From the NCBI RefSeq assembly GCF_019443405.1, contig NZ_CP080376.1:930001-994000 (forward strand): a DNA stretch of 64,000 nt. The letters are read 5' to 3'. The position numbers and the translations under genes were made by a program. The DNA comes from Brevundimonas sp. PAMC22021. GTDB lineage: Bacteria > Pseudomonadota > Alphaproteobacteria > Caulobacterales > Caulobacteraceae. Of the stretch, positions 48,487 through 61,185 are shown one piece after another. The first letter of the stretch is position 1. Each line of letters opens with the position of its first letter. The notes beneath the pieces were generated by a model. The model ran no database searches. It was given only the letters and a program-made list of their open reading frames with translations, and had not been told where the DNA came from.

Positions 48487-49068
48487 TCAGATGCGACAGC
48501 GGATCGCCGCCAGCATCTCGATCTGGCTGTTCACGCCGGCCTTCAGGAAGGTCGAGCGGATGTGGCTGCGCACCGTGCTGATCGACACCTCCATGCGGTC
48601 GGCCACGGCTTGCGGGCTCAGACCGTTCAGCAGATGGGCGGCCACGGCGGCCTCGGCGGCCGTAAAGCCATAGAGCGCCCGGCCCGCGGCCGAGGCGCGA
48701 TCCGCAGGATCGGAGCCGGGCCAGCGCACGATCACCACGACGCCTGTCCAATCCACGTGACCGACGCCCAGGCGCACGATCTCGGCCAAGGCCGTCTCGC
48801 CGCCGTCAGGGCCGGGCAGGGGCAGCAGCCGCGCGCCGATCCGCTGGCCCGACGCCATCTCGGCGATGGCGGCGCGGAGCGTCCGTGATCCCGACGCGCG
48901 CATTTCCAGCTGCTCGTCCTTCAGACGCAGATAAAGGCCGTCATCGAACAGGCGCAGACCGCTCGGAGTGGCGGCGAGCACCCGGCCCTCCGCGTCACAG
49001 ACAAAGGCGGCAAGCCCCATCGCCTGGAGCACCCCGGCGGTCTGCGCCGCCTCCTGCATCCGCTGCAT
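48487..49068 (-). CDS. LuxR-type HTH regulator with PAS-like N-terminus
   Basis: A DNA-binding regulator, 193 residues from ATG 49068. The C-terminal LuxR/FixJ helix-turn-helix is FTAAEAAVAAHLLNGLSPQA followed by VADRMEVSISTVRSHIRS. The N-terminal part (AFVCDAEGRVLAATPSGLRLF) looks PAS-like, without a phospho-acceptor domain. It is divergent from csgF-csgG with a 385-bp gap, so it may be the local counterpart of CsgD, though it lacks CsgD's receiver-like domain. Start is uncertain; the frame is open to 49317 through AT-richer sequence that looks non-coding. Confidence 0.85.
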   Translation of the reverse strand: MQRMQEAAQTAGVLQAMGLAAFVCDAEGRVLAATPSGLRLFDDGLYLRLKDEQLEMRASGSRTLRAAIAEMASGQRIGARLLPLPGPDGGETALAEIVRLGVGHVDWTGVVVIVRWPGSDPADRASAAGRALYGFTAAEAAVAAHLLNGLSPQAVADRMEVSISTVRSHIRSTFLKAGVNSQIEMLAAIRCRI

Positions 49069-49453
49069 GTCCGACGCCGACTGCGGAAACTCGGGTCGTG
49101 TGCGTGATTGTCCCACTTTTGGGATTTTTCCTCTCGACGGCGGCCGTTGCTGTGCTATTGCCCGTAGCCAGACGTGCCGATCGAAACTTAGCAAAAGTTG
49201 CGATTCCGCCGGCCATGGTGCACGGGTAAGGTTAAGCTTCGAACTTAACGGCAAAAAAGCCAGCCTTCTCGCCTTTTCTCCCATGACGCGAAAAGCCCGA
49301 CGAACTCTGGGTTTCAAAAGGTTAATGCCCGCGAACGCTGTGGATCGCGCGGCTCGGCGAACCCTGTCTCCTCAATAATGATGATGCTTACCAAATCACT
49401 AACGGCCATGTTCCGCCGCGTCGCGGACGGGGGTCCGCTGGGGCTAGGTAAGC
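49069..49453. promoter_or_regulatory. Intergenic control region between luxR-type gene and csgF
   Basis: This gap is distinctly more AT-rich than its surroundings and carries the inverted repeat GTTAAGCTTCGAACTTAAC at 49231-49249 (arms GTTAAG and CTTAAC). A second GGTTAA half site is near 49318. The TTAA pair is nine bases apart, not the seven of a CtrA box. Promoters for both divergent units should lie here, but no clear -35/-10 pair was identified. Confidence 0.6.
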
Positions 49454-49930
49454 ATGAGAGTTTTTCTGGATGCGTCCGCAGGGCGCAAGCCGCCTAGCGG
49501 GCCGCTGAAGCGCGGCGCGCTGTTCATCGCGGCGGTGATCGCGAGCGCCACGGGAGCCGGCGCCGCCTCGGCGCAGGATCTTGTCTATACGCCGATCAAT
49601 CCGACATTCGGCGGCAACTCGTTCAACTCGGCGCACCTTTTGGGCATCGCCAATGCGCAGAACGACTATCGGGATCCAAACTCGACCACGGGCTCGAGCC
49701 AGGGCGACATCTTCGCTCGCCAGCTGCAATCGCGTCTGCTGTCGGCGGTGTCGTCGCAGCTGGTGGACGCCATATTCGGCGAGAACCCGCAGGAAAGCGG
49801 CACCATCAGCCTGGGCGGCCAGACGATCGATTTCAATCGCGATCTCGAAAACGTCACCATCACCATCACCGATGACGCCACGGGCGAGATCACCACGATC
49901 ATCGTCCCGCTGTTCGTGAACATCCAGTGA
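49454..49930 (+). CDS. csgF: Curli assembly protein CsgF
   Basis: A 158-residue CsgF, the surface-located factor that caps the CsgG pore and helps nucleation. Mature start after ASAQ: DLVYTPINPTFGGNSFNSAH then LLGIANAQND, the conserved CsgF N-terminus that plugs into CsgG. The signal peptide has an unusually long n-region (about 21 residues) beginning MRVFLDASAG. The closely similar MRVFQDESAG begins the ORF at 54746. Its stop overlaps the csgG start by one base. Confidence 0.92.
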   Translation: MRVFLDASAGRKPPSGPLKRGALFIAAVIASATGAGAASAQDLVYTPINPTFGGNSFNSAHLLGIANAQNDYRDPNSTTGSSQGDIFARQLQSRLLSAVSSQLVDAIFGENPQESGTISLGGQTIDFNRDLENVTITITDDATGEITTIIVPLFVNIQ

Positions 49931-51033
49931 TGCGCGCCCTTTCCGCCATCGCCGCCGTCTTGACCCTGACGGGTTGCGCCGCGCAGGCCGTGCAGTCGGT
50001 CGCCGACATCACGCCGACGGCCCTGCCGACCTATCAGTCCGCGACCGAGAGCCAGAAGGCGCTGTTCGGCATTCCGTCGCCGGCGCGCCCGGTGGCCGTC
50101 GCCGTCTACAGCTTCACCGACCAGACCGGCCAGTTCCGCCCATCCTCGACCGGCCAGACGCTGTCGCGCGCGGTGACGCAAGGCTCGACCTCGATCCTGA
50201 TGAAGGCGCTGCAGGACGCCGGCCGTCGCAGCTGGTTCACCATCATCGAGCGCGAACAGCTGGCTCATCTGCTGAACGAGCGCCAGATCATCCGCGAGAT
50301 GCGCGAACGCTATCTGGGTGAGACCACGCTGAACGCAGAGGCGCTGCCGTCCCTGCTGTTCGCCGGCGTGATCCTGGAGGGCGGGGTCATCGGCTATGAC
50401 TCCAACACCATGACCGGCGGCGCCGGCGCGGGCTTTCTGGGCATCAGCGCCCGCAGCGAATATCGCCAGGACACGGTCACCGTCTATCTACGCGCCGTGT
50501 CGGTGCGCACCGGCGAAGTGCTGACCACCGTCACCGCGGCCAAGACCATCGCCTCCTACAGCGTGGGCGGCGGCGCCTTCCGCTATGTCGGCTTCAAGGA
50601 GTTGCTGGAGGCCGAAGCCGGTCTGACCACCAACGAGCCGGACCAGGTGGCGCTGCAACAGGCGATCGAAAAGGCGGTCTACGCCATGGTCATGGAAGGC
50701 GTCGAGTTGAAGCTCTGGAACTTCGCCGACACCGACGCCGGCTGGCCGCTGTTCTACCGCTATCAGCAAGAGCGGGACGGCCACATGACGGCCGAGCAGG
50801 TCGCCGCCGCCAACGCCCGGGTGCAGCACGCCCAGGCCATGGCCGAGGCCTCGCCCGTTCAATCAAGACCCCGCCTGGCCCGCCTGGAAGGCGGCCAGAA
50901 TGTGGCGCAGGTCTTGCAACCCAGTACAGCGTCGGGAGGCGGCGTCCCAATCGGGAACACGACCTCCAGCGGTGTAGCGTCCACGTCCGCCCAGACCCGC
51001 GCTCTGAACACGGGCCCAACCGGACACCAGTAG
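49930..51033 (+). CDS. csgG: Curli secretion pore lipoprotein CsgG
   Basis: A 367-residue outer-membrane lipoprotein that forms the nonameric secretion channel for curlin subunits. Lipobox LTLTGC with Cys16. Family core: VAVAVYSFTDQTGQFRPS, STILMKALQDAGRRSWFTII-type segment, LNERQIIREMRERYLGET, VILEGGVIGYDSNTMTGG and ISARSEYRQDTVTVYLRAV, including the pore-loop region. The C-terminal about 90 residues beyond the E. coli length (277) are Gln/Ala/Ser-rich. ATG 49930 follows TGATG overlap; GTG 49927 is an alternative. Confidence 0.95.
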   Translation: MRALSAIAAVLTLTGCAAQAVQSVADITPTALPTYQSATESQKALFGIPSPARPVAVAVYSFTDQTGQFRPSSTGQTLSRAVTQGSTSILMKALQDAGRRSWFTIIEREQLAHLLNERQIIREMRERYLGETTLNAEALPSLLFAGVILEGGVIGYDSNTMTGGAGAGFLGISARSEYRQDTVTVYLRAVSVRTGEVLTTVTAAKTIASYSVGGGAFRYVGFKELLEAEAGLTTNEPDQVALQQAIEKAVYAMVMEGVELKLWNFADTDAGWPLFYRYQQERDGHMTAEQVAAANARVQHAQAMAEASPVQSRPRLARLEGGQNVAQVLQPSTASGGGVPIGNTTSSGVASTSAQTRALNTGPTGHQ

Positions 51034-51166
51034 GCGTAACGCCTCCGCGCGGGCGAGTGTCGCGCGGGCTTAACCCAGAACAGAACCGCGCCGGCCTGCA
51101 CGCCGGCGGTCGTCAACCCGACGGCGCGACCCTGCATGGGCGGTCGTCACCAGGGAGTTAACACCC

Positions 51167-52852
51167 GTGAAACGCACCATTCTCGCTTCGGTTTCCGCCG
51201 TCGCGCTTCTGGCCGGAGGCTCAGCCTTCGCCCAGACAAACAACACGTCGACGATCAACCAGTCTGGTACAGATCAGCAAGCTGAAGTTGAACAATACGG
51301 TCGCAACAACACCTCGAACGTCACTCAAAGCGGCAGCAACAATCGCACCAACATTGGTGACATCGGCGTTGAGCAGCGCGGAAACGACCACTCGTCGATT
51401 GTCAACCAAACCGGAGCGGGCGGCACTGTTCGCGTGCAGCAGTTCAATGAGGCCGGCGTTGGTGGCAACACGTCGCTTGTGAACCAGAGCGCGAACGGCG
51501 TGGTCAGCGCCAAGCAACACGGCGACAATGATCTGGTCGTGAACCAGGACGCAGGCCGCATCGACTACAGCGCCAGCATTCCGGGCAGCCCCACGAACGC
51601 CATGGCTTGGGTGGAGCAGCACGGCGACAACACCGCAAACATCACCCAAACCGAAACGGCCGATGGTTCGGATGCTTCGGTGTACCAGAACGGCTCGGGC
51701 AACCGCGCAACAGTCGATCAAGATGCCGGCATGAACGACGCGGGCGATGAGTGGAACGCCCGCGGTCTGGGCGGCATCGACCAAGTCGGCGATGCAAACG
51801 AGGCGACCATCACGCAACGCGCCGGATCCTACGCGGACGTGATGCAGAATGGTGACGGCAACTCCGCCGAAGTGACGCAGCAATCCGCCGGCAACTACGC
51901 GGCTACGAGCCAAACAGGTTCAGACAACACTGTTGACGTGGTGCAGCGTGACCAAGCCGGCGGCATCGTCACGACGGTGCAAAACAGTGACGACAGCTCC
52001 ATCAACGTCACGCAAACGTCGGACAACTCGGAAGCCTATCTCGAGCAAGGCGCAGGCGAGGGCAACAGCATCGTCCTGACGCAAGGCCGCGCGGCTGGAT
52101 CTCAGTTCCAGACCAACGGTCAAGAAGCCAACATTCAGCAGTACGGCGACGACAACGAAGTGTTGGCCAGCCAGTCGGGCAGCTCCGGCGATCTCGACAT
52201 CTATCAAAATGGTGATGGCAACTACGCCAACACGTCGCAATCCGGCTTCGACAACTCGATCGGCGACAGTGACCTGAACGGTTCAGTGGGTATCGATCAG
52301 ATCGGCTCTCGCAACGACGCCTTTGTGTCGCAGTCGGGTCAACTCTCGACCGTCTTGATCTCGCAAGTCAGCAGCGACAACTTCGCCGAAGTCAATCAAG
52401 GCGTGAACAACGCGCCGAACCCGGCGGGTTCGCCCGACCCTGCAGTTGCGATGGCCTCGATTCGCCAAGAAGGCGGCAGCTTCAACAGCAGCACAATTAA
52501 CCAGGTCGGCGGCAACGCCACCAACAGCGCCCGTCTGATGAACGCCGTCTCGACCCAGAGCGGCAATGACAACGTCAGCACAATCGACCAGACGAACACG
52601 TCCATCGCGTCGGCCTTCTCCAGCAACCTGGCGCAGGTTCGTCAGTCGGGCGACAACAACGACTCGGAAGTCCGACAAGACGGCATCCTGCTGATCGCCG
52701 ACGTGACTCAATCGGGCTCGGACAACACCTCCGACCTGTTCCAGACCGGAACGCAGAACAGCGCCACCGTGGTGCAGTCGGGCTCTTTCGACACCTCCAT
52801 CATCAATCAAAGCGGCGCCAACAACACCGCTTCGGTGCGTCAAGGCAACTGA
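51167..52852 (+). CDS. Very long curlin-repeat amyloid subunit (CsgA/CsgB-like), 561 aa
   Basis: A secreted protein with signal MKRTILASVSAVALLAGGSA ending FAQ. The rest is built of curlin-type strands of the form xVxQxGxxN; by eye about 40 Q-centred strands, compared with about ten in E. coli CsgA (151 aa). Typical units are NTSNVTQSGSNNRTN and IDQIGSRNDAFVSQSG. It ends TASVRQGN, as does the next protein (VASVRQGN). Function inferred: major or co-major matrix amyloid exported through CsgG. GTG start has CAGGGAG nine bases upstream. GC is lower than in neighbours, from Asn/Gln-rich codons. Confidence 0.9.
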   Translation: MKRTILASVSAVALLAGGSAFAQTNNTSTINQSGTDQQAEVEQYGRNNTSNVTQSGSNNRTNIGDIGVEQRGNDHSSIVNQTGAGGTVRVQQFNEAGVGGNTSLVNQSANGVVSAKQHGDNDLVVNQDAGRIDYSASIPGSPTNAMAWVEQHGDNTANITQTETADGSDASVYQNGSGNRATVDQDAGMNDAGDEWNARGLGGIDQVGDANEATITQRAGSYADVMQNGDGNSAEVTQQSAGNYAATSQTGSDNTVDVVQRDQAGGIVTTVQNSDDSSINVTQTSDNSEAYLEQGAGEGNSIVLTQGRAAGSQFQTNGQEANIQQYGDDNEVLASQSGSSGDLDIYQNGDGNYANTSQSGFDNSIGDSDLNGSVGIDQIGSRNDAFVSQSGQLSTVLISQVSSDNFAEVNQGVNNAPNPAGSPDPAVAMASIRQEGGSFNSSTINQVGGNATNSARLMNAVSTQSGNDNVSTIDQTNTSIASAFSSNLAQVRQSGDNNDSEVRQDGILLIADVTQSGSDNTSDLFQTGTQNSATVVQSGSFDTSIINQSGANNTASVRQGN

Positions 52853-52914
52853 GTGCTCAGGCCGCGTCTTCGGGCGCGGCTTTTCTCAAACCATAGATCC
52901 AACAGGAAACGACA

Positions 52915-54627
52915 ATGAAACTCTCCATCCTCGCGTCGGTCTCGGCCGTCGCTCTCCTCGCCGCCGGCGCCGCTTCAGCCCAAAGCAACACCTCGAACGT
53001 CACTCAAGCCGGAAATGGCCAGAACGCTGACGTGACGCAACGTGGCGCGAATGGCGTCTCCGCCGTGTTGCAAGACGGTTCGAACTCCAACTACGCTATC
53101 GTGGCTCAATACACGGGCTCCTCCCGCGCTGACTCCTACGTCTCGCAGAACGGCCAATACAGCATCGCTCGTGTGGACCAGGAGGGCGCGGGCGCCGAGT
53201 CGGATGTCACTCAGACCGGAAGCTCGCACCGCGTAGACGTGGATCAGAACGGCGACAGCTTCTCGTCGATCACACAGCAGAACTTCAACAACGACGCCAA
53301 CGTCAAGCAGACGGGCGACGCCAATCAGTCGTACATCTCGCAGACGGGCGACCGCGGCAACATTGGCTTGCACCCGAACAGCGTGAGCGGACTGGTCCAG
53401 AATGGCACTGCGAACGTCTCGAACATCACCCAGTCCGGTTCAGAACAAGATGCGGCTGTGAGCCAGCTGGGCAACGCGAACACCTCGGTTATCGACCAGA
53501 GCGGTAATCTGGCATCCTCGACGGTCCTCCAAAACGGCGACCGCAACGACTCCTTCGTGTCCCAGTTCGCTGAAGGCGCGTCGGCTACCGTTGCGCAGAA
53601 CAGCGACGACAACCGCTCCAACATCGTTCAGAACGCCGACGCCACCGCCTCGGTGACGCAGGGTGGCGGCTTCAACAGCTTTGGCACGATCGATGGTCGT
53701 GAGAACAACGTCTCGAACATCTTCCAGGAAGCTGGTTCCGCGGGTGCTGCCGCGACGGTTTCCCAAAACGGCGTTCTGAACTCGTCGCTGATCTATCAAG
53801 GCGCGGATTCGGACGCGACTGTGTCGCAAACCGGCACGTTCAACACCTCCGAGATCGACCAGGACGCCGACACCTCGGCTTCGGTGACTCAAGGCGGCGC
53901 CTACGGTGACAACCGCTCCTATGTTCTGCAAGGCGTGGGTTCGGACGGTTCGCAAGCCATCGTCAATCAATCCTCGGATAGCCGTCAGGCGGCTGCTCCG
54001 AGCAACGACTCGGTGATCCGCCAGTCAGCCGAGAACGCCTTCGCTGGCGTCAACCAAACCGGCGACGATAACTTGTCTAACGTGATCCAAAGCGGCGCCT
54101 TCAGCACCGCTGGCGTGTTGCAGAACGGCACGGGCAACGTGTCGAACGTTGACCAAGCGGGCGTCGTCACGTCAGCTGCGCTGCGCAACGCCGCTATGGT
54201 CGAGCAGATCGGCAGCAACCTCAACTCGGATATCGATCAAGTCGGTGAGTACGGCGACGCGATCGTTGACCAAATCGGCTCCGGCAACCGCTCGGTGGTT
54301 TATCAAGCCGCCAGCGGCAACACCGCCGAGATCGAGCAATCGGGCAGCGACAACCGTTCGCTGCTGTCGCAAACGGGGAACAACAACAACTTCTTCTTCG
54401 GCACGGGCGGCATCTCGCAATCCGGCACGGGTAATGAGTCTGATGCTTTCCAAACCGGCGACAACGGCATCCTGAATGTCACGCAAAGCGGATCGAACAA
54501 CGACTCGCTGGTCAACCAAGGCGGCAACCTGAACACCGCCACCGTTGTGCAAACGAGCGACTTCAACGTCTCGACCATCACTCAAGGTGGTTCGAACAAC
54601 GTCGCCTCGGTGCGTCAGGGCAACTAA
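52915..54627 (+). CDS. Very long curlin-repeat amyloid subunit (CsgA/CsgB-like), 570 aa
   Basis: Paralogue of the preceding gene, 62 bp downstream. Signal MKLSILASVSAVALLAAGAA ends ASAQ. About 45 Q-centred curlin strands were counted by eye, for example VTQAGNGQNADVTQRG, ISQTGDRGN and VSQLGNANTSVIDQSG. Same C-terminal cap VASVRQGN. The two share signal sequence and terminus but the repeat cores are diverged, so they arose by an old duplication and are probably both structural. Which is nucleator and which is fibre cannot be told. Confidence 0.9.
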   Translation: MKLSILASVSAVALLAAGAASAQSNTSNVTQAGNGQNADVTQRGANGVSAVLQDGSNSNYAIVAQYTGSSRADSYVSQNGQYSIARVDQEGAGAESDVTQTGSSHRVDVDQNGDSFSSITQQNFNNDANVKQTGDANQSYISQTGDRGNIGLHPNSVSGLVQNGTANVSNITQSGSEQDAAVSQLGNANTSVIDQSGNLASSTVLQNGDRNDSFVSQFAEGASATVAQNSDDNRSNIVQNADATASVTQGGGFNSFGTIDGRENNVSNIFQEAGSAGAAATVSQNGVLNSSLIYQGADSDATVSQTGTFNTSEIDQDADTSASVTQGGAYGDNRSYVLQGVGSDGSQAIVNQSSDSRQAAAPSNDSVIRQSAENAFAGVNQTGDDNLSNVIQSGAFSTAGVLQNGTGNVSNVDQAGVVTSAALRNAAMVEQIGSNLNSDIDQVGEYGDAIVDQIGSGNRSVVYQAASGNTAEIEQSGSDNRSLLSQTGNNNNFFFGTGGISQSGTGNESDAFQTGDNGILNVTQSGSNNDSLVNQGGNLNTATVVQTSDFNVSTITQGGSNNVASVRQGN

Positions 54628-54745
54628 GGCCTACCCGCGACCGACCTCTTCCTCCGGGATCGGGTCGGTCGCGACACCGGAGGGGCGGGCGCAGGGATGC
54701 GTCCGCCTCGACGGCTGATCGCGAGAAGCTCCAAGCTTTGACGCG

Positions 54746-55402
54746 ATGCGAGTTTTTCAAGACGAGTCGGCTGGGCCGGCGGTCTTTTGCAACGGAGCTG
54801 GATCCATGATCCGCACTCTCCTTCTTTCCGCCCTGTTCGCCGCCGCCGCCGCCTCGGGCGCGCAGGCCCAGATCGCGGCCAGCGCCTATGTGGAGCAGAT
54901 CGGCGACGCCAACCGCGCCACGATCACCCAGGCGCGGGGCTCGGCGTCGACCGCCGCCCGCATCCAGCAGCGCGGCGACAACAACACGGCCGGCGTCCGG
55001 CAGGAGGCTGGATCGGCCTATGCCGACGTGGCGCAATTCGGGAACGGCAACGGGGCCGGTGTCCTCCAGCAGGGAGATGCCGGCGGCCGGGCCACGGTGG
55101 GCCAGAACGGCAACGGCAACCAGGCCTCGGTCACGCAGATGGCCAGCGTCACGGCGCACGCCGCCTCCATTCAGCAGGACGGCGACCGCAACAGCATCGC
55201 CCTGAACCAGTCGGGCGAAGGCAACTCGGCCACCCTGACGCAGGACGGCGATGACAACGGCATGGTCGTCGCGCAGTCCGGCGCCGGCAACGCCCTGAAC
55301 TGGACGCAGGTCGGATCGAACCTGAGCGCGCCCGCCGTGATCATGGACGGGGTTGGCAAGACCCTGACCATCACCCAGACCAGCATTGTCACGCCCAAAT
55401 GA
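54746..55402 (+). CDS. Short curlin-repeat protein with extended signal region
   Basis: A secreted curlin-like protein. From 54806 it has 198 residues with signal MIRTLLLSALFAAAAASGAQ; from 54746 it has 218 with an added n-region beginning MRVFQDESAG, nearly the same as the start of CsgF. GGAG eight bases before 54806 favours the short form, but the shared decapeptide, with mainly synonymous codon differences, favours the long. Repeats include VEQIGDANRATITQ, GQNGNGNQASVTQ and LNQSGEGNSATLTQDG, about eight to ten strands, close in size to CsgA/CsgB. It may be the minor, nucleating subunit. Stop overlaps the next gene (ATGA). Confidence 0.85.
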   Translation: MRVFQDESAGPAVFCNGAGSMIRTLLLSALFAAAAASGAQAQIAASAYVEQIGDANRATITQARGSASTAARIQQRGDNNTAGVRQEAGSAYADVAQFGNGNGAGVLQQGDAGGRATVGQNGNGNQASVTQMASVTAHAASIQQDGDRNSIALNQSGEGNSATLTQDGDDNGMVVAQSGAGNALNWTQVGSNLSAPAVIMDGVGKTLTITQTSIVTPK

Positions 55403-56493
55403 CGGACGCGGTGGCCGACAGCGACATCGCGGTCGGCGCCCCGGCCGGCCGGAACCGGCGTCTGGCCGCGACCGTCGTTCTGGCGGTCATGTCGCTGGTG
55501 TGGGTCGGTGATGCGGGCGTGCGGGTGGTCAGGTCCATGGGCGACACTCCGAAGCTGTTCTCGCTCGGTGGCCTGGGCGCGGATGCCGACGGCGCGGACG
55601 CGACCGCGCCCGGTCCGCAGTCGGTCCTGATCCAGACCGGCCAGGGCAATCTGGCCGCCATACTCTCTTCCGGGGCGGTTCAGTCGCGGGTCTCCCAGTT
55701 CGGCGCTGACAACGAAGTGCAGGTGCGCCAAAACGGCGACGGCCTCGTTTCCGTGGTCGAGCAGGGCAGGGCGCCGGGAGCGGCCTCCGTATTCGAAACC
55801 GATCTGGCGGGGCGTCGCGCGGGGGTCGATCCGCTCGGTGGGGTCTCGGGCAACCGCGCCTTTATCGATCAGACGGGGGTGAACAACCGGTCGCTGATCG
55901 GCCAGTTCGGGACGGGCGCGACGGCCGACGTCGTGCAGCGCGGCGCGGGCAATCTGTCCAGCATCTTCCAGTCCGGCGCCGACGCCTCTGTGTTTGTCAG
56001 CCAGGCGGGCGAGCGCAACGGCTCGCTGATCATGCAGCACGACTTCGCGGTGCGCGCCAATGTGGTCCAGGTCGGCGAAGACGGCCTGTCCGAAGCGCGC
56101 CAGTGGGACCAGTCCTCCGGCTCGATCGCCCAGGTGTTCCAGGCGGGATCGCGCTCCATGTCCGACATCGACCAGGCCGGCGTGCGCAATCTCGCCACCG
56201 TGGTCCAGTGGGACGGCAGCGAGCGGGTCGCCTCCACCGTGATCCAGGACGGAAACCTGGGTCAGGCGCGGGTGGATCAGGCGGGGGTGGAGCTGGTCTC
56301 CATCGTGCGCCAGGCGTCCGGAGAGGCCAACGTCGCCGAGGTGTACCAGGCGGGTCTGAACAATGTGTCGGAGATCCTCCAGTCGGGATCCGCCAACATG
56401 GCCGCAGCGCGTCAGTCCGGCAGCGGCAATCGATCCGTCATCACCCAGTCCGGAACGGGCAACGTCGCCAGCGTCAGCCAGTCCGCCCTGTAG
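55399..56493 (+). CDS. Curlin-repeat protein with N-terminal membrane anchor
   Basis: A 364-residue protein. Instead of a cleavable signal it has a 20-residue Arg-preceded hydrophobic helix (RRLAATVVLAVMSLVWVG, residues about 22-40) without an evident cleavage site, then about 40 spacer residues and curlin strands: LIQTGQGNLAAIL, VSQFGADNEVQVRQNGDG, ITQSGTGNVASVSQSAL. The strands are spaced less regularly than in the two long proteins and several repeats have Glu or Trp in place of Asn. Translationally coupled to the preceding gene. It could be an anchored nucleator or assembly guide; it may instead be cleaved and secreted. Confidence 0.82.
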   Translation: MTDAVADSDIAVGAPAGRNRRLAATVVLAVMSLVWVGDAGVRVVRSMGDTPKLFSLGGLGADADGADATAPGPQSVLIQTGQGNLAAILSSGAVQSRVSQFGADNEVQVRQNGDGLVSVVEQGRAPGAASVFETDLAGRRAGVDPLGGVSGNRAFIDQTGVNNRSLIGQFGTGATADVVQRGAGNLSSIFQSGADASVFVSQAGERNGSLIMQHDFAVRANVVQVGEDGLSEARQWDQSSGSIAQVFQAGSRSMSDIDQAGVRNLATVVQWDGSERVASTVIQDGNLGQARVDQAGVELVSIVRQASGEANVAEVYQAGLNNVSEILQSGSANMAAARQSGSGNRSVITQSGTGNVASVSQSAL

Positions 56494-56540
56494 GTTCGGG
56501 GCTCGACCTGCTACAATCGTTGTCAAGGAGGCCGCGCCGC

Positions 56541-57272
56541 ATGATCCGTTCCGCCGCCGTTTTCGCCGCCGTCCTGCTCGCCTCCGGCGCCGCCGTGGGC
56601 CAGGATGGCTCGGGCGTGGCCATCACCCAGACCAATCCGACGCGGCCGGGCTCCTCCGACGCCGCACGCGCCGCCCAGGTGGGCGCGCCCGCCGCGCCTC
56701 TGCCGCAGGCAGAGCCGAGACCGCGCGACCGCACCGTGTCCGGCTCGACCCCGCCCGCCGACGGACCCGTGCCCTATACCCAAGTGACGGGCGAACGCGG
56801 ACAGGCCTATTCGCGGCTGGACCTGGCCACAGGCAGGCCCAGCGCCGAGGCGCCGGCGTCGCCCGCGCGCCGGGCCGAGGGACGAAACACCAGCACCGTG
56901 GTTCCAACCGGCCCGGATCGTTGCGATCCGCAGAACGCCCAGGCCCTCGCGGCATGTGCGCGCGTGATCGAGACGCGAGCCGGGGATTTTCCTGCGCCGA
57001 ACCCCGAACCGCTGTCGCCGGAACAAAGACTGCTGGCGACGCAGAACGAGCAACGGACGGCGCCGAACGATCTGGGCGCCGCCGCGCGTCGCCTGGCCAA
57101 TGGCGAGGTTGACGGCTCCAACGCCGCCCTGGCCGTCGCCTCCATGGCCCTGAACCGGCCCGCGCCGGATGAAGAGGATGCGGAAACGCCGGCGCTGGAC
57201 GCCGCGACCCAGGCGATCGTCGCCGGCGTGATAGGGGTGATCGGCGCAGGCGCTCCGGTCACGCCGAACTAG
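56541..57272 (+). CDS. Secreted protein of unknown function in the curli locus
   Basis: A 243-residue protein, not recognised. Signal MIRSAAVFAAVLLASGAAVG is followed by mature QDGSGVAITQTNPTRPG. The middle is Pro/Ala-rich; it has two Cys at PDRCDPQNAQALAACARVIE, about 13 residues apart, which could form a disulfide, and a C-terminal hydrophobic AIVAGVIGVIGAGAPVTPN. Strong AAGGAGG precedes ATG. It ends with TAG 12 bp before csgH, in the same frame. Position suggests a role in curli export or assembly; a CsgE-like function is conceivable but no CsgE similarity is seen. Confidence 0.8.
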   Translation: MIRSAAVFAAVLLASGAAVGQDGSGVAITQTNPTRPGSSDAARAAQVGAPAAPLPQAEPRPRDRTVSGSTPPADGPVPYTQVTGERGQAYSRLDLATGRPSAEAPASPARRAEGRNTSTVVPTGPDRCDPQNAQALAACARVIETRAGDFPAPNPEPLSPEQRLLATQNEQRTAPNDLGAAARRLANGEVDGSNAALAVASMALNRPAPDEEDAETPALDAATQAIVAGVIGVIGAGAPVTPN

Positions 57273-57284
57273 AAGGACTGCGCG

Positions 57285-57605
57285 ATGATCCCGGCCGATG
57301 GCGTGGACGCCCACTTCGAGATGGTTCGGTCCGAACGCGGGGTGGCCGTGTCCGCCTATGTCGCCGCCGACACGCCGCGCGAGCTGCGTTGGCGGCTGGT
57401 GGTCAGCTCGCGCACAAGCGGCGGGACCAGCAATGTCAGCCAAGGCGGCTCCACCGATGGCCGGTCGTCCGGACCTGTGGGCGTGGTGACCGTCTCGCCC
57501 GACAGTCAGGGCGCGGTGACCCTGTCCGTCTATGACGGCGAACGCATGGTGCACGAAGAGACGGCGGACCTCGCCGAGATGTCGTCGAGCTCGGAAGGCC
57601 GCTGA
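57285..57605 (+). CDS. csgH: Curli chaperone CsgH (CsgC-like)
   Basis: A 106-residue protein with the CsgH pattern: LRWRLVVSSRTSGGTSNVSQ then GG, and a beta-sandwich continuing as GVVTVSPDSQGAVTLSVYDG. CsgH in alphaproteobacteria, like CsgC, keeps CsgA from polymerising in the periplasm. It has no Cys, so no CxC of CsgC. No signal peptide is visible in the first residues (MIPADGVDAHFEMVRSE), which is odd for a periplasmic chaperone. The previous ORF, which has a signal, is in the same frame across a TAG. AAGGA lies eight bases before ATG. Confidence 0.84.
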   Translation: MIPADGVDAHFEMVRSERGVAVSAYVAADTPRELRWRLVVSSRTSGGTSNVSQGGSTDGRSSGPVGVVTVSPDSQGAVTLSVYDGERMVHEETADLAEMSSSSEGR

Positions 57606-57611
57606 CCGGCT

Positions 57612-58958
57612 CTACTGCTCGCTGCCCGTCCGCCACAGGCTGGAGGTGAGGGGCTCGGTCAGATAGGCGAGGGCGGTGCGCTTGCGCAGCAGCACGACGA
57701 CCTCGGCGGGCATGCCGGGCCGGATCTGGCGAGCCTTGGCGCCGAGCCGCTCGAGCTCGGCCGGCGGCACCACCACCTCGGCCCGGTAGTGACTGCGGCC
57801 GGTGGCCTCGTCGACGAAGCTGTCGGCCGAGATGCGCGTGACCTGACCGTGCAGGATCGGGATCGAACGCTCGCGAAGGCCAGGGAACTTGACCTCGGTC
57901 TCCTGGCCGATGCGGAGGTTGTCGATGTCGGCGGGATTGACCTGGGCGACGATCACCTGCGACGCCTCGTCCGGCACCACATCCATCAGCGTCTGGCCGG
58001 GCTGGATCACGCCGCCGGGCGTGAACACCGTCAGGCCGACGACCTGGCCGGTCGAGGGGCTGCGGATCTGGCTGCGGGCGATCTGACGCCGCGCCTCTTC
58101 CAGCCTTGGGCGGAGTTCGTTCAGCTGCACCTCGAGCTGGCGCAGGGTGTCGGCGACATCCTCGTTCATCTTGGTGGACACGCCCAGCATCTCGAGCCGG
58201 GTTTCGCCCACGGCCTCGCGCGCACTGGCGACCTGGGCGCGCAGGGCGCCGAGTTCGCCATCGAGGGACGCGGCCGTGCGCTCGAGCGCGCGCACGCGGT
58301 TCTGCGGCGCGAAACCCTTGGCTGCGAGTTCGCGCATGCCGACCAGTTCCTCCTCGATCAGGCGGCGCTGGGCGATGTTGGATTCGATCTGGCGCTGATA
58401 GCCCTCGATCTGCTGGTCGACCTGGCCGATGCGCTGCTGCAGCACGCCGGTCTCGGTCGAGCGGCCGCTGCGGCGGGCGCCGAACTGGAGGCGCTGTAGC
58501 CGCAGAGCCTCGTCGGCGAGGGCGCGGTCTTCGGCGGAAAGGCCGGCGAACTCTGCCGGAATGGGAATGGCGCCCAGGCGGTCGCGTTCGGCGATCATGC
58601 GGGCGCGCTGGGCCAGCAAGGACAGGACCTGTCCGGTCAGGCCGCGCTCGACGGCGCGCAGCTCTCCGGTGTTCAGCTCCACCAGCACCTGGCCGCGCTG
58701 GACCCGGTCGCCCTCGGCCACATGCAGTCGCGAGACGGTGCCGCCCTCGCGGTGCTGAACGGCCTGGCGATTGCCGGACACGGCGACCTGACCAGAGGCG
58801 TAGGCGCCCGCGTCCAGCGGCGCGAACGCCGCCCAGCCCAGGAACAGGCCAAAGAACAAGGCGATCAGCACGCCGCCGATGATCAGGTCACGACGGGGCG
58901 AATCGAGCTGGTCGTCGGAAGCGGAGACGCCGCCGGGGGGATCAAGCGTCTGGGTCAT
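57612..58958 (-). CDS. Type I secretion membrane fusion protein (HlyD/PrtE family)
   Basis: A 448-residue periplasmic adaptor linking the ABC transporter to a TolC-type channel. N-terminal anchor helix at about residues 25-46 (DLIIGGVLIALFFGLFLGWA), lipoyl half-motifs (VSGNRQAVQHREGGTV) near residues 60 and 300 (QIRSPSTGQVVGL), long coiled-coil hairpin at about 140-290, and a C-terminal PGMPAEVVVLLRKRTAL typical of the PrtE group. Starts in ATGA-type overlap with the ABC gene. The wider open frame (to 60266) is antisense shadow of the ABC gene and is rejected. Confidence 0.94.
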   Translation of the reverse strand: MTQTLDPPGGVSASDDQLDSPRRDLIIGGVLIALFFGLFLGWAAFAPLDAGAYASGQVAVSGNRQAVQHREGGTVSRLHVAEGDRVQRGQVLVELNTGELRAVERGLTGQVLSLLAQRARMIAERDRLGAIPIPAEFAGLSAEDRALADEALRLQRLQFGARRSGRSTETGVLQQRIGQVDQQIEGYQRQIESNIAQRRLIEEELVGMRELAAKGFAPQNRVRALERTAASLDGELGALRAQVASAREAVGETRLEMLGVSTKMNEDVADTLRQLEVQLNELRPRLEEARRQIARSQIRSPSTGQVVGLTVFTPGGVIQPGQTLMDVVPDEASQVIVAQVNPADIDNLRIGQETEVKFPGLRERSIPILHGQVTRISADSFVDEATGRSHYRAEVVVPPAELERLGAKARQIRPGMPAEVVVLLRKRTALAYLTEPLTSSLWRTGSEQ

Positions 58959-60691
58959 TGCGGGCGAGCTCCGGCGGCGGCGGGTTCGGCGCGCATGCGG
59001 CCAAGGACAGCTTCGCGCGGGCCTTCCAGATGCACCGCACCGTCGCGCAAGGTCAGCAGACGATCGACTCGAGACAGCACGCCGGCCCGGTGCGCGACGA
59101 TCACGACGGCGGCCCCGCGCGCGGCGGCGGCCAGCATGGCGCTCATCAAGGCGGCCTCGCCGTCGCTGTCCAGGTTGGAGTTGGGCTCGTCCAGCACCAG
59201 CAGCACCGGGTCGTCGTAGAGGGCGCGCGCCAGGGCGATGCGCTGAGCCTGGCCGGCGGAGACGCCCGCGCCGGAGGGGCCAAGCACCGTGTCGTAGCCG
59301 TGCGGCAGGCGCAGGATCATCTCGTGCGCGCCGGCGGCTTGGGCGGCGGCGACGGCCTTCGCGTCGATCTCTGGGGAAGACGGGCCTGCGCCACGAGCGA
59401 AGCGAGAAATGTTGTCGGTGATCGCGCCGGCGAAGAGGCTTGGGTTCTGCGGCAGATAGCCGATGTGGCGCGCCAGTTCGTCGCTGTCGCGGGCGCTGTA
59501 TTCCGCGCCGTCCAGCCGCACGACGCCGACCGTGGGGTCCAGCGCGCCGGCAAGGACACGCGCCAGCGTCGTCTTGCCCGATCCGCTGGGGCCGATCACG
59601 CCCAGGATCTGGCCCGGCGCCAAGGTCAGGGACACGCCGCGCAATTGGGGCTGGTCGGTGTCGGGCAGGCGCACGGCGACGCCCTCCGTCTGCACCTTGC
59701 CGGACGGGGCGGGCAGGGCGGTGCGCGGGCGATCTTCGCTCTTGCTGGCGGCGAACAGGACGATCAGCGACTTCCAGGCGGCGATGGCCTGGTTGATGCC
59801 GGTCCAGGCGCCGACCAGCTGTTCGATGGGCGCGACCGCGCGGCTGAGCAGGACCGAGGCCGCGATGATCGAGCCGATGGAGATGTCTCCATGCACCGCC
59901 AGCCAGGCGGCCAGACCAAGCGCGGCCGACTGAAGAACCAGGCGCAGGAATTTGGTCAGGCCGGAGTATTTGCCGCCATGAAGCTGGGCGTCGGCGTGTT
60001 GCGCGGTGGCGATCCGGCGTTGTTCCAGCTGGCGGGCGATGCTGCTGCGTCGCATGCCCAGGGCGCGCAGCACCTCGGCCTGGCCGGCGACCGCGTCCTG
60101 GGCCGCGTAGGCGGCGTTGGTTGAACGGACGGCCTTGTTCGTACGCGGGCGGCTGTCGCGCTCGTTCAGCACCGCCAGGATCAGCAGGACGGCCCCGCCG
60201 CAGAGGGTCAGAACGCCGATGGCGGGGTGCAGGAGAAAGCAGCAGATCAGATAGATCGGCGTCCACGGGGCGTCAAAGAAGGCCAACGCGCCGGCGCCGG
60301 ACAGACCGGATCGCACCGTGTCGAAGTCGCGCAGAGCCTGTGCGCCCGACCGTCCCGACTTCAGGTCGATCACCCGGCCGAGCACGTCGGCGGCCAGCAG
60401 CCGGTCCAGTCGCAGCCCCGCCCGCAGCAGCAGCCGCTGGCGCAACCAATCCAGGCCCGACAGCGTGGCGAGCGCGAACAGGGCGGCGGCGCTGATCAGC
60501 ATCAGCGTCAGCATGCCGCCGGTCGGCACCACCCGGTCATAGACCTGCATCATGTACAGGGTGGGCGCGAGATACAGCAGGTTGACCAGGGCGCTGAACA
60601 CCGCCGCCCAGACCATATAGGTCCGCACCGCGCGCACGCCGGCCGTCAGCGGCTCTGTTCCCGGCGTGGTCGGCAGCAGGCTTTTGAACAC
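58955..60691 (-). CDS. Type I secretion ABC transporter (PrtD family)
   Basis: A 578-residue permease-ATPase exporting RTX proteins without a cleaved signal. Membrane part with about six helices (MVWAAVFSALVNLLYLAPTL; FFDAPWTPIYLICCFLLHPA), then the ATPase: Walker A GPSGSGKTT, signature GVSAGQAQRIALARAL, Walker B LLVLDEPNSNLD and AHRAG. It has no C39 peptidase domain, fitting PrtD. GTG 60691 with upstream GGGGGAG is chosen over an ATG at 60751. Transcribed away from the metalloprotease gene, its probable cargo. No tolC is adjacent. Confidence 0.94.
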   Translation of the reverse strand: MFKSLLPTTPGTEPLTAGVRAVRTYMVWAAVFSALVNLLYLAPTLYMMQVYDRVVPTGGMLTLMLISAAALFALATLSGLDWLRQRLLLRAGLRLDRLLAADVLGRVIDLKSGRSGAQALRDFDTVRSGLSGAGALAFFDAPWTPIYLICCFLLHPAIGVLTLCGGAVLLILAVLNERDSRPRTNKAVRSTNAAYAAQDAVAGQAEVLRALGMRRSSIARQLEQRRIATAQHADAQLHGGKYSGLTKFLRLVLQSAALGLAAWLAVHGDISIGSIIAASVLLSRAVAPIEQLVGAWTGINQAIAAWKSLIVLFAASKSEDRPRTALPAPSGKVQTEGVAVRLPDTDQPQLRGVSLTLAPGQILGVIGPSGSGKTTLARVLAGALDPTVGVVRLDGAEYSARDSDELARHIGYLPQNPSLFAGAITDNISRFARGAGPSSPEIDAKAVAAAQAAGAHEMILRLPHGYDTVLGPSGAGVSAGQAQRIALARALYDDPVLLVLDEPNSNLDSDGEAALMSAMLAAAARGAAVVIVAHRAGVLSRVDRLLTLRDGAVHLEGPREAVLGRMRAEPAAAGARPQ

Positions 60692-61185
60692 TCCGCGCTC
60701 CCCCGAGCTGCTCGCGGCGTTCCGGCCGCATAGCCGACCAAGAAACCACATTGAGCAGGCAACACAAGCACTTCCTCAGCCGGCAAGCTTGACCGTTCCG
60801 CAAGAAGATCAACCGCTTAACAAAAGAGGATCGACAAAGCGGTCAGACATCGAATGCTGGCCAACAGCTATTGACGGACTTCCGTTTACCACGTCCTCTG
60901 ACGATCGGGCGCCGTTGTGAAGAGGGACAGCAGCGGTGTCCAGGCGACAAAGCAGGGGAAGCGGTCAGTCTGATGCGGGGGAATGCATGTTGAATCCATC
61001 AAGCGGTGGAGCGGGCCTGATCGATGCGGCGTCGCGGATCGCGAGCGACGCGCATGATCCCGGATCGTCTCCGGCTGGTTGGCCAACGCTTACAGACAAC
61101 TGCGTTTTCAGAGATCCTGCCTCGGCGAACAGAAAAAGCCGCGCCGGGCGGTAATCCATCAATCATCTAACGGAGGGACTGCGAG
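60692..61185. promoter_or_regulatory. Divergent promoter region of secretion genes and metalloprotease
   Basis: A 494-bp gap with no convincing ORF. It is moderately less GC-rich than the coding parts. It must hold the promoters of both directions. A TTGACC box at 60789 has no good -10 partner. GGAGGG at 61172-61177, eight bases before the protease ATG, is its ribosome site. Confidence 0.55.

What the first reader, a model, noticed from the sequence alone, without database searches (positions are those of the whole stretch)
49454..57605. Curli-like locus with oversized amyloid subunits and extra parts
Seen: csgF-csgG, two curlin-repeat proteins of 561 and 570 aa with about 40-45 Q-centred strands each, two shorter curlin-repeat proteins, an unknown secreted protein, and csgH, all on one strand with overlapping or close genes. 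E. coli uses one 151-aa CsgA and one CsgB. Established: CsgG/CsgF secrete curlin, CsgH blocks early polymerisation. Inference: one polypeptide here would give a beta-solenoid about four times longer than CsgA, so fibre nucleation and secretion through CsgG may work differently. No csgE or csgD was recognised.
Basis: partly seen in the sequence, partly recalled or inferred. Interest (0 to 1): 0.7.

Follow-up and report, generated by a model that had tools for sequence, protein, structure and literature searches.

The report
Alphaproteobacterial curli locus with undescribed accessory protein
This is a real gene cluster for making curli-type amyloid fibres, and its long fibre subunits are normal for this group of bacteria, but it also carries a conserved, apparently undescribed secreted protein and a chaperone without an export signal that deserve testing.

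Summary
In detail: csgF, csgG, four curlin-repeat proteins (561, 570, 218 and 364 aa), an unknown secreted protein and csgH lie in tandem at 49454-57605. The headline is not new. Curlins with up to 22 (2012) and 62 (2023) repeats are published, and so is the absence of csgC, csgD and csgE from Alphaproteobacteria. In 51 related loci with curlins, window included, the longest has a median of 569 aa. The 'unknown secreted protein' belongs to a conserved two-cysteine family; no Pfam or NCBIfam match was found for it. I found it in 24 loci, each beside curlin genes, usually before csgH. CsgH here has no recognisable signal peptide and no cysteine. CsgE was not found in this genome or 384 others of the class, and curlins A and B lack an N22-sized leader. 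CsgG has a 102-residue tail; such tails are longer and more basic in loci with the new protein, though the window's own tail is neutral. Best reading: a CsgE-less type VIII secretion system for long acidic curlins with a lineage-specific accessory set; the accessory roles are inferred.

The parts
48487..49317 (-). LuxR-type HTH regulator, divergent from csgF (candidate regulator; role inferred)
   Evidence: GerE 1.9e-6, above cut-off; matches E. coli CsgD only in the HTH, 27% over 60 aa, E 8e-5
49454..49930 (+). csgF
   Evidence: PF10614 2.6e-33; aligns to E. coli CsgF structures, NPxFGGN segment kept
49927..51033 (+). csgG, with a 102-residue C-terminal extension after the LWNF motif
   Evidence: PF03783 3.8e-58; residues 3-267 align to E. 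coli CsgG, E 6e-55; tail
51167..52852 (+). curlin A, 561 aa, long subunit, net charge -43
   Evidence: PF07012 4.9e-43, 13 stretches; 44 strand motifs in the mature part
52915..54627 (+). curlin B, 570 aa, long subunit, net charge -36
   Evidence: PF07012 2.9e-38, 14 stretches; 48 strand motifs in the mature part
54746..55402 (+). curlin C, short subunit, CsgB-like role inferred (218 aa; 198 aa if the start is 54806)
   Evidence: PF07012 2.4e-21; 15 strand motifs, shuffle mean 6.2, maximum 11 of 500; apparent counterpart of the short curlin that precedes the two-cysteine gene in most relatives
55399..56493 (+). curlin D, 364 aa, with an atypical N-terminus (long n-region, then a roughly 20-residue hydrophobic segment)
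   Evidence: PF07012 1.2e-24; 25 strand motifs, shuffle maximum 16; N-terminal 95 aa found in only two clusters, 92% and 83% identical
56541..57272 (+). two-cysteine curli-operon protein, 243 aa, apparent signal peptide, no Pfam or NCBIfam match
   Evidence: 79 proteins at E <= 1e-3, its own included; invariant C128 and C139; curlin genes beside it in all 18 named loci found
57285..57605 (+). csgH, 106 aa, without recognisable signal peptide and without cysteines
   Evidence: NF041112 47 bits, cut-off 35; N-terminus and cysteines

Best explanation
A complete, CsgE-less type VIII secretion (curli) locus of an alphaproteobacterium. Shown by sequence: a CsgG pore, CsgF, four curlin-repeat proteins, CsgH and a conserved two-cysteine protein with an apparent signal peptide, in an operon-like row. 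Inferred: A and B are made as unfolded, very acidic chains, pass the inner membrane by Sec, thread through CsgG-CsgF and fold outside into long beta-solenoid blocks that stack end to end; the short curlin C plays a CsgB-like nucleator or end part. The jobs that CsgE and the N22 leader do in E. coli (recruitment to the pore and gating) are done by other means, most likely the C-terminal extension of CsgG together with the two-cysteine protein, whose mature N-terminus carries one curlin-like strand followed by a probably flexible region and a core with two invariant cysteines. CsgH, lacking an export signal, would act before export, in the cytoplasm, if it is translated as the DNA reads.
For: Family matches. 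The order csgF-csgG-long curlin(s)-short curlin-two-cysteine protein-csgH recurs in relatives, with exceptions. Of loci found by the two-cysteine family's sequence, 18 of 18 have curlin genes beside it. CsgE in 0 of 385 class genomes including this one, E. coli ringing as control. First strand Q lies 9 and 8 residues after the AxA site in A and B against 28 after residue 20 in E. coli CsgA. All 67 long curlins counted are acidic. CsgG tails are longer and more basic in loci with the two-cysteine protein (20 vs 14 loci, medians 73.5 vs 43.5 aa and +4.5 vs -3.5).
Against: No expression, fibre or structure data. The window's own CsgG tail has net charge 0, against the electrostatic idea for this strain. 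Clade structure confounds the tail and CsgH correlations. Most CsgF-bearing genomes of the order lack the two-cysteine protein (31 of 42), so it cannot be generally required for CsgE-less curli. CsgF was found in only 1 of 121 genomes sampled from the genus, the own one, so the locus may be dispensable or recently gained.
Confidence: 0.7

Rival explanations
1. The two-cysteine protein is an extracellular part of the fibre (cap, anchor or minor subunit), exported through CsgG with the curlins, and has no role in export. (An alternative for that part only; compatible with the rest of the best explanation.)
For: Apparent signal peptide and a nearly invariant curlin-like strand: Q30 in 71 of 75 aligned rows, V, I, A or M two residues before it in 73 of 73, about nine residues after the likely cleavage site, as in curlins A and B. 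Its gene usually follows the short curlin.
Against: The other conserved glutamines (46, 81, 94) are mostly followed by I, V or L and do not fit the curlin strand; the window's protein has no clear excess of strand motifs over shuffles (6 vs mean 3.2, maximum 8); being next to csgH fits a chaperone-side role as well.
Confidence: 0.35
2. The locus is an ordinary alphaproteobacterial curli operon and the two-cysteine protein only a lineage marker without a special role.
For: Most CsgF-bearing genomes of the order do without it (31 of 42); long curlins and missing CsgE are published as general.
Against: A conserved core with two invariant cysteines, in Caulobacterales and Sphingomonadales, and a nearly constant place speak for a kept function.
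Confidence: 0.3
3. A decaying or recently acquired locus that is not expressed.
For: CsgF and the two-cysteine protein were each found in only 1 of 121 sampled genomes of the genus, the own one; no sigma-70-like promoter found by a simple scan (0 found, 0.7 expected in shuffles).
Against: All eight frames are open; close homologues of the two-cysteine protein (89%) and of curlin D (83% and 92%, same length) exist elsewhere; the promoter scan does not cover other promoter types.
Confidence: 0.1

Closest known systems
Alphaproteobacterial csg loci with csgH (Dueholm et al. 2012, PMC3521004; outline, passages and sections 7 and 14 seen)
   Same: Multiple curlins with csgH; no csgC, csgD or csgE in Alphaproteobacteria; curlins up to 22 repeats and 529 aa reported.
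   Different: The parts read name no extra conserved secreted protein and no CsgH without an export signal; curlins here reach 561 and 570 aa, and 1110 aa in Brevundimonas variabilis.
Long curlins surveyed by Sleutel et al. 2023 (PMC10192328; passages seen)
   Same: Tandem curlin repeats of about 23 aa, secondary maxima near 15 and 22 repeats, a degenerate class with arc insertions. A solved 363-aa curlin-repeat protein, 8c50, matches curlin A at 2.8e-21; that 8c50 belongs to that study is my recollection.
   Different: The passages read treat subunits and count the known csg genes; they name none of the accessory features seen here.
E. coli curli (csgBAC, csgDEFG)
   Same: CsgG homologous over residues 3-267, CsgF, curlin repeats.
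   Different: E. coli has CsgE, CsgD, CsgC and 151-aa subunits with an N22 leader (PMC7217966, passages); no CsgE and no N22-sized leader on A and B here.
CsgC/CsgH chaperones (Taylor et al. 2016, PMC4838910; passages and section 4 seen)
   Same: The window protein passes the NCBIfam CsgH model and sits in the curli operon.
   Different: Published CsgH has two distant cysteines in a disulfide and a periplasmic role (PMC5135000, passages); here no cysteines and no recognisable signal peptide.

Membership tests
Curli / type VIII secretion system | CsgG pore | tested here: met
   PF03783 3.8e-58; alignment to E. coli CsgG structures
Curli / type VIII secretion system | CsgF | tested here: met
   PF10614 2.6e-33
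Curli / type VIII secretion system | Curlin-repeat subunits in the same locus | tested here: met
   Four proteins over the PF07012 cut-off
Curli / type VIII secretion system | CsgE (E. coli type; reported absent from all Alphaproteobacteria, so not required for membership) | tested here: not met
   0 of 41 genomes (own and relatives) and 0 of 385 class genomes, own included
Curli / type VIII secretion system | CsgG-dependent extracellular amyloid fibres | not testable with these tools
   Needs the bench
CsgH | Match to a curated CsgH model | tested here: met
   NF041112 47 bits over 35; but PF21112 only 17.6, below its 27
CsgH | Two sequence-distant cysteines forming a disulfide | tested here: not met
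   No cysteine; definition from PMC4838910 section 4. So I call it CsgH by sequence model and place, not by this feature
CsgH | Export signal for a periplasmic role | tested here: not met
   No hydrophobic leader by a simple hydropathy measure; 12 bp separate the upstream stop from the start codon; no trained predictor was on hand
CsgE | Two-cysteine protein detectably related to CsgE | tested here: not met
   hhalign probability 0.2% against the single E. coli CsgE sequence; CsgE has no cysteines (PMC5135000, passage)
CsgD | Regulator homologous beyond the HTH | tested here: not met
   The divergent LuxR-type protein aligns to E. coli CsgD only at residues 216-267

The most novel reading that the evidence does not exclude
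Alphaproteobacterial curli of this lineage use a different loading step: a conserved two-cysteine protein, with a curlin-like first strand, works with the C-terminal tail of CsgG in place of CsgE and N22, and a cytoplasmic CsgH guards very long curlins before Sec export rather than in the periplasm.
Probability: 0.17. Interest if true: 0.7.

Novelty: new variant of a known kind. Interest (0 to 1): 0.42.

Why it matters
How CsgE-less curli systems recruit and meter subunits about four to seven times longer than CsgA seems open, because the E. coli model rests on a CsgE-capped CsgG pore that takes in one small subunit (PMC4838910 and PMC7217966, passages). The two-cysteine protein, the CsgG tail and the signal-less CsgH are concrete parts that make the question testable by gene deletion.

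Tried and rejected
Oversized subunits as the novelty: rejected, published and typical. Two-cysteine protein as a diverged CsgE or CsgC: no signal against the single E. coli sequences. As a known family: the window's protein has no Pfam or NCBIfam match; among 32 family members two Pfam families appear, each in one member at E 0.046 and 0.096; no solved relative up to E 1. Read-through fusion of the two-cysteine protein with CsgH: in the window the two genes share a frame, but in L032 and L037 they do not (my reading of the coordinates), so it is not a conserved arrangement. Loss of cysteines in CsgH as a mark of a cytoplasmic place: rejected, since the signal-bearing CsgHs of L042, L048, L064 and eight of L090-L099 have none either, while some signal-less ones have one or two. 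Curlin D as a proven inner-membrane-anchored curlin: not settled; a GDA site could be a signal-peptidase site. The shared MRVFxDxSAG start of csgF and curlin C: no other instance in the ORFs of the 41 stretches; not explained.

Mistakes mended: the home-made CsgH model missed CsgHs outside the stretches and at least one inside (L066, genome G390); the co-occurrence count therefore uses the NF041112 search of 42 genomes, but the signal-peptide count of 22 still rests on the home-made model. In one search curlin C was read in a wrong frame; redone. In one search one CsgG tail (L063) came from an N-terminal match; dropped. ORF lengths of relatives run from the first possible start, so they are upper bounds. 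Structure prediction was off, so neither the solenoid nor the two-cysteine fold was modelled.
Full report
What is there. The + strand from 49454 to 57605 encodes CsgF, CsgG, four curlin-repeat proteins (A 561, B 570, C 218, D 364 aa), an apparently secreted protein without a Pfam or NCBIfam match, and CsgH. Gaps are -4, 133, 62, 118, -4, 47 and 12 bp. All 19 curlin-repeat matches of the 2.9 Mb genome are here; a second, distant CsgG relative lies elsewhere. The repeat count is far above chance: 44 and 48 strand motifs in mature A and B against shuffle maxima of 23 and 25 in 500, with Q periodicity of 11; E. coli CsgA has 10 on the same measure. A has nine and B four intervals longer than 13 residues, so a solenoid would carry outward loops.

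What is not new. Dueholm et al. 2012 (PMC3521004; outline, passages and two sections seen) report curlins of up to 22 repeats and 529 aa, absence of csgC, csgD and csgE from Alphaproteobacteria, and csgH. Sleutel et al. 2023 (PMC10192328; passages) report 4 to 62 repeats with maxima at 5 or 7-8 and near 15 and 22. CsgF occurs in 42 of 398 genomes sampled from the order, own included, but in only 1 of 121 of the genus, the own one. I annotated 56 stretches: the window, 40 of the 41 other CsgF-bearing genomes of that sample (G163 was not fetched), and 15 of the 18 named loci; three named loci were dropped because their contig lengths equal those of fetched genomes. By coordinates L087 is probably G163 itself, and L088 probably the other half of the broken G193 locus (L071), so the 56 stretches stand for about 55 genomes. 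Curlins were recognised in 51 of 56; the longest has a median of 569 aa, 26 of 51 are 561 aa or more, and the maximum is 1110 aa, in Brevundimonas variabilis. No curlin was recognised in L061, L063, L067, L068 and L071, of which L067, L068 and L071 are short contigs (5-13 kb). The window's subunits are typical.

What is new to me. The 'unknown secreted protein' is one of 79 proteins at E <= 1e-3 (only the 8000 candidates sharing most words were scored). Alignment: six invariant columns, among them C128 and C139, and a core reading GxDRCDP...CxRVIETR...LSPEQRLL. A scan of named genomes with a 32-member alignment of the family gave 18 loci, and in all 18 curlin genes lie next to the match; csgG or part of it is present in 17 of 18, the other (L097) being a 7.7 kb contig. 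Hosts include Brevundimonas variabilis, Asticcacaulis tiandongensis and Aquidulcibacter (Caulobacterales) and Sphingomonas, Sphingosinicella and Sphingobium (Sphingomonadales; lineages of four of these names, the rest recalled). Of the 56 stretches 24 carry it and one more does weakly (L065); csgH was recognised in 19 of these 24. Among the 42 CsgF-bearing order genomes the family is in 11. A sample of 385 class genomes gave only the own one (at most seven candidates per genome were scored, so this may undercount). CsgH by NF041112 is in 20 of the 42 at E <= 0.001, 14 of them over the curated cut-off; of the nine in genomes with the two-cysteine protein only three are over it. Placing the hits beside csgF by coordinates, by eye, gives 9 of 11 genomes with the two-cysteine protein and 4 of 31 without (Fisher 7e-5); I counted G193 as beside although its contigs are broken, and seven further CsgHs lie elsewhere in their genomes. 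Clades are not independent, so this is suggestive only. G030 and G213 have the two-cysteine protein without a CsgH match.

CsgH. The window's CsgH starts 12 bp after the upstream stop, leaving no room for an export signal, and has no cysteine. Of 22 CsgHs recognised by my own model in the annotated stretches, 11 show no signal peptide; all 11 are in loci with the two-cysteine protein, from the window's family, from family f3 of the sample, or from Brevundimonas, Asticcacaulis and Aquidulcibacter (L036 has an uncertain start). The other 11 look signal-bearing: eight in loci with the two-cysteine protein (six Sphingomonadales and two MAGs, one of them, L091, labelled Caulobacteraceae) and three in loci without it. 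The hydropathy measure is crude: L096, counted as signal-bearing by eye, and L033, counted as signal-less, both score 1.57; the other signal-bearing ones exceed 1.85 and the other signal-less ones reach at most 1.50. Five CsgHs from outside the order have two or three cysteines, spaced far apart (L101-L104, L106; a sixth locus, L107, gave no match), as in the definition of Taylor et al. 2016 (PMC4838910 section 4). A review places CsgH in the periplasm (PMC5135000, passages).

CsgG and leaders. Residues 3-267 of CsgG match E. coli CsgG; after LWNF a 102-residue tail follows. In 34 of 55 stretches with csgG (count) a simple motif located the tail: those with the two-cysteine protein have longer and more basic tails (n = 20, medians 73.5 aa and +4.5) than the others (n = 14, 43.5 aa and -3.5), Mann-Whitney 4e-4 and 3e-5, not corrected for relatedness. 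The window's tail is neutral, which is against a simple charge story here. All 67 long curlins counted are acidic. In A and B the first strand glutamine comes 9 and 8 residues after the AxA site, against 28 in CsgA and 24 in CsgB counted from residue 20, so there is no N22-sized leader. In E. coli N22 binds CsgG, and CsgE prefers CsgA without N22 (PMC7217966, passages). Absence of both in one system is consistent, but not proof of a substitute. Over the annotated stretches 70 of 116 curlins with a recognisable AxA site start within 12 residues and 18 at 22 or later, so short leaders are common but not universal.

Curlin D. Its first 95 residues occur in only two clusters, 92% and 83% identical. 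It has an n-region of about 21 residues and a hydrophobic stretch of about 20; it could be a signal anchor or a long signal peptide cut after GDA. Not settled.

Mechanism. Shown: parts list, order, conservation, no CsgE found. Inferred: unfolded export through CsgG-CsgF, solenoid stacking outside, short curlin as nucleator-like part, two-cysteine protein as loading factor or fibre end part, CsgH acting before export. In the two-cysteine family Q30 is kept in 71 of 75 aligned rows with V, I, A or M two residues before it in 73 of 73, which fits one curlin strand; the other conserved glutamines do not fit.

Literature. The searches (listings, apart from the papers named; one search found none) showed me no description of the two-cysteine family or of a CsgH without an export signal; the library lacks most subscription journals. 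The name CsgI is taken by E. coli YccT (listing).

Verdict.

Noticed in passing
window 49454-49483 and 54746-54775: csgF and curlin C share a start MRVFxDxSAG at protein level with differing third codon bases; no other instance in the ORFs of the window stretch and 40 order relatives. Curlin C has another start at 54806 with GGAG upstream.
   Followed up: partly
window 48487-49317: Divergent LuxR-type HTH regulator 136 bp from csgF; LuxR-type ORFs recur near curli loci of relatives, though LuxR proteins are common and no background was counted.
   Followed up: partly
G000:C1:500836-501456 (L109 3142-4146): Second, distant CsgG-family protein of 334 aa (1.8e-14), possibly HfaB-like (recalled, not tested); no curlin repeat there.
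   Followed up: partly
L082 5753-9085; L083 5934-9002; L032 5105-8155: Curlin ORFs of 1110, 1022 and 1016 aa with 38, 34 and 32 QxxxxN-type motifs in Brevundimonas variabilis, Asticcacaulis tiandongensis and an unnamed relative.
   Followed up: partly
window 57612-60751: Convergent pair that looks like a type I secretion ABC transporter and an HlyD-like fusion protein, judged from the ORF translations only; apparently unrelated to the curli genes.
   Followed up: no
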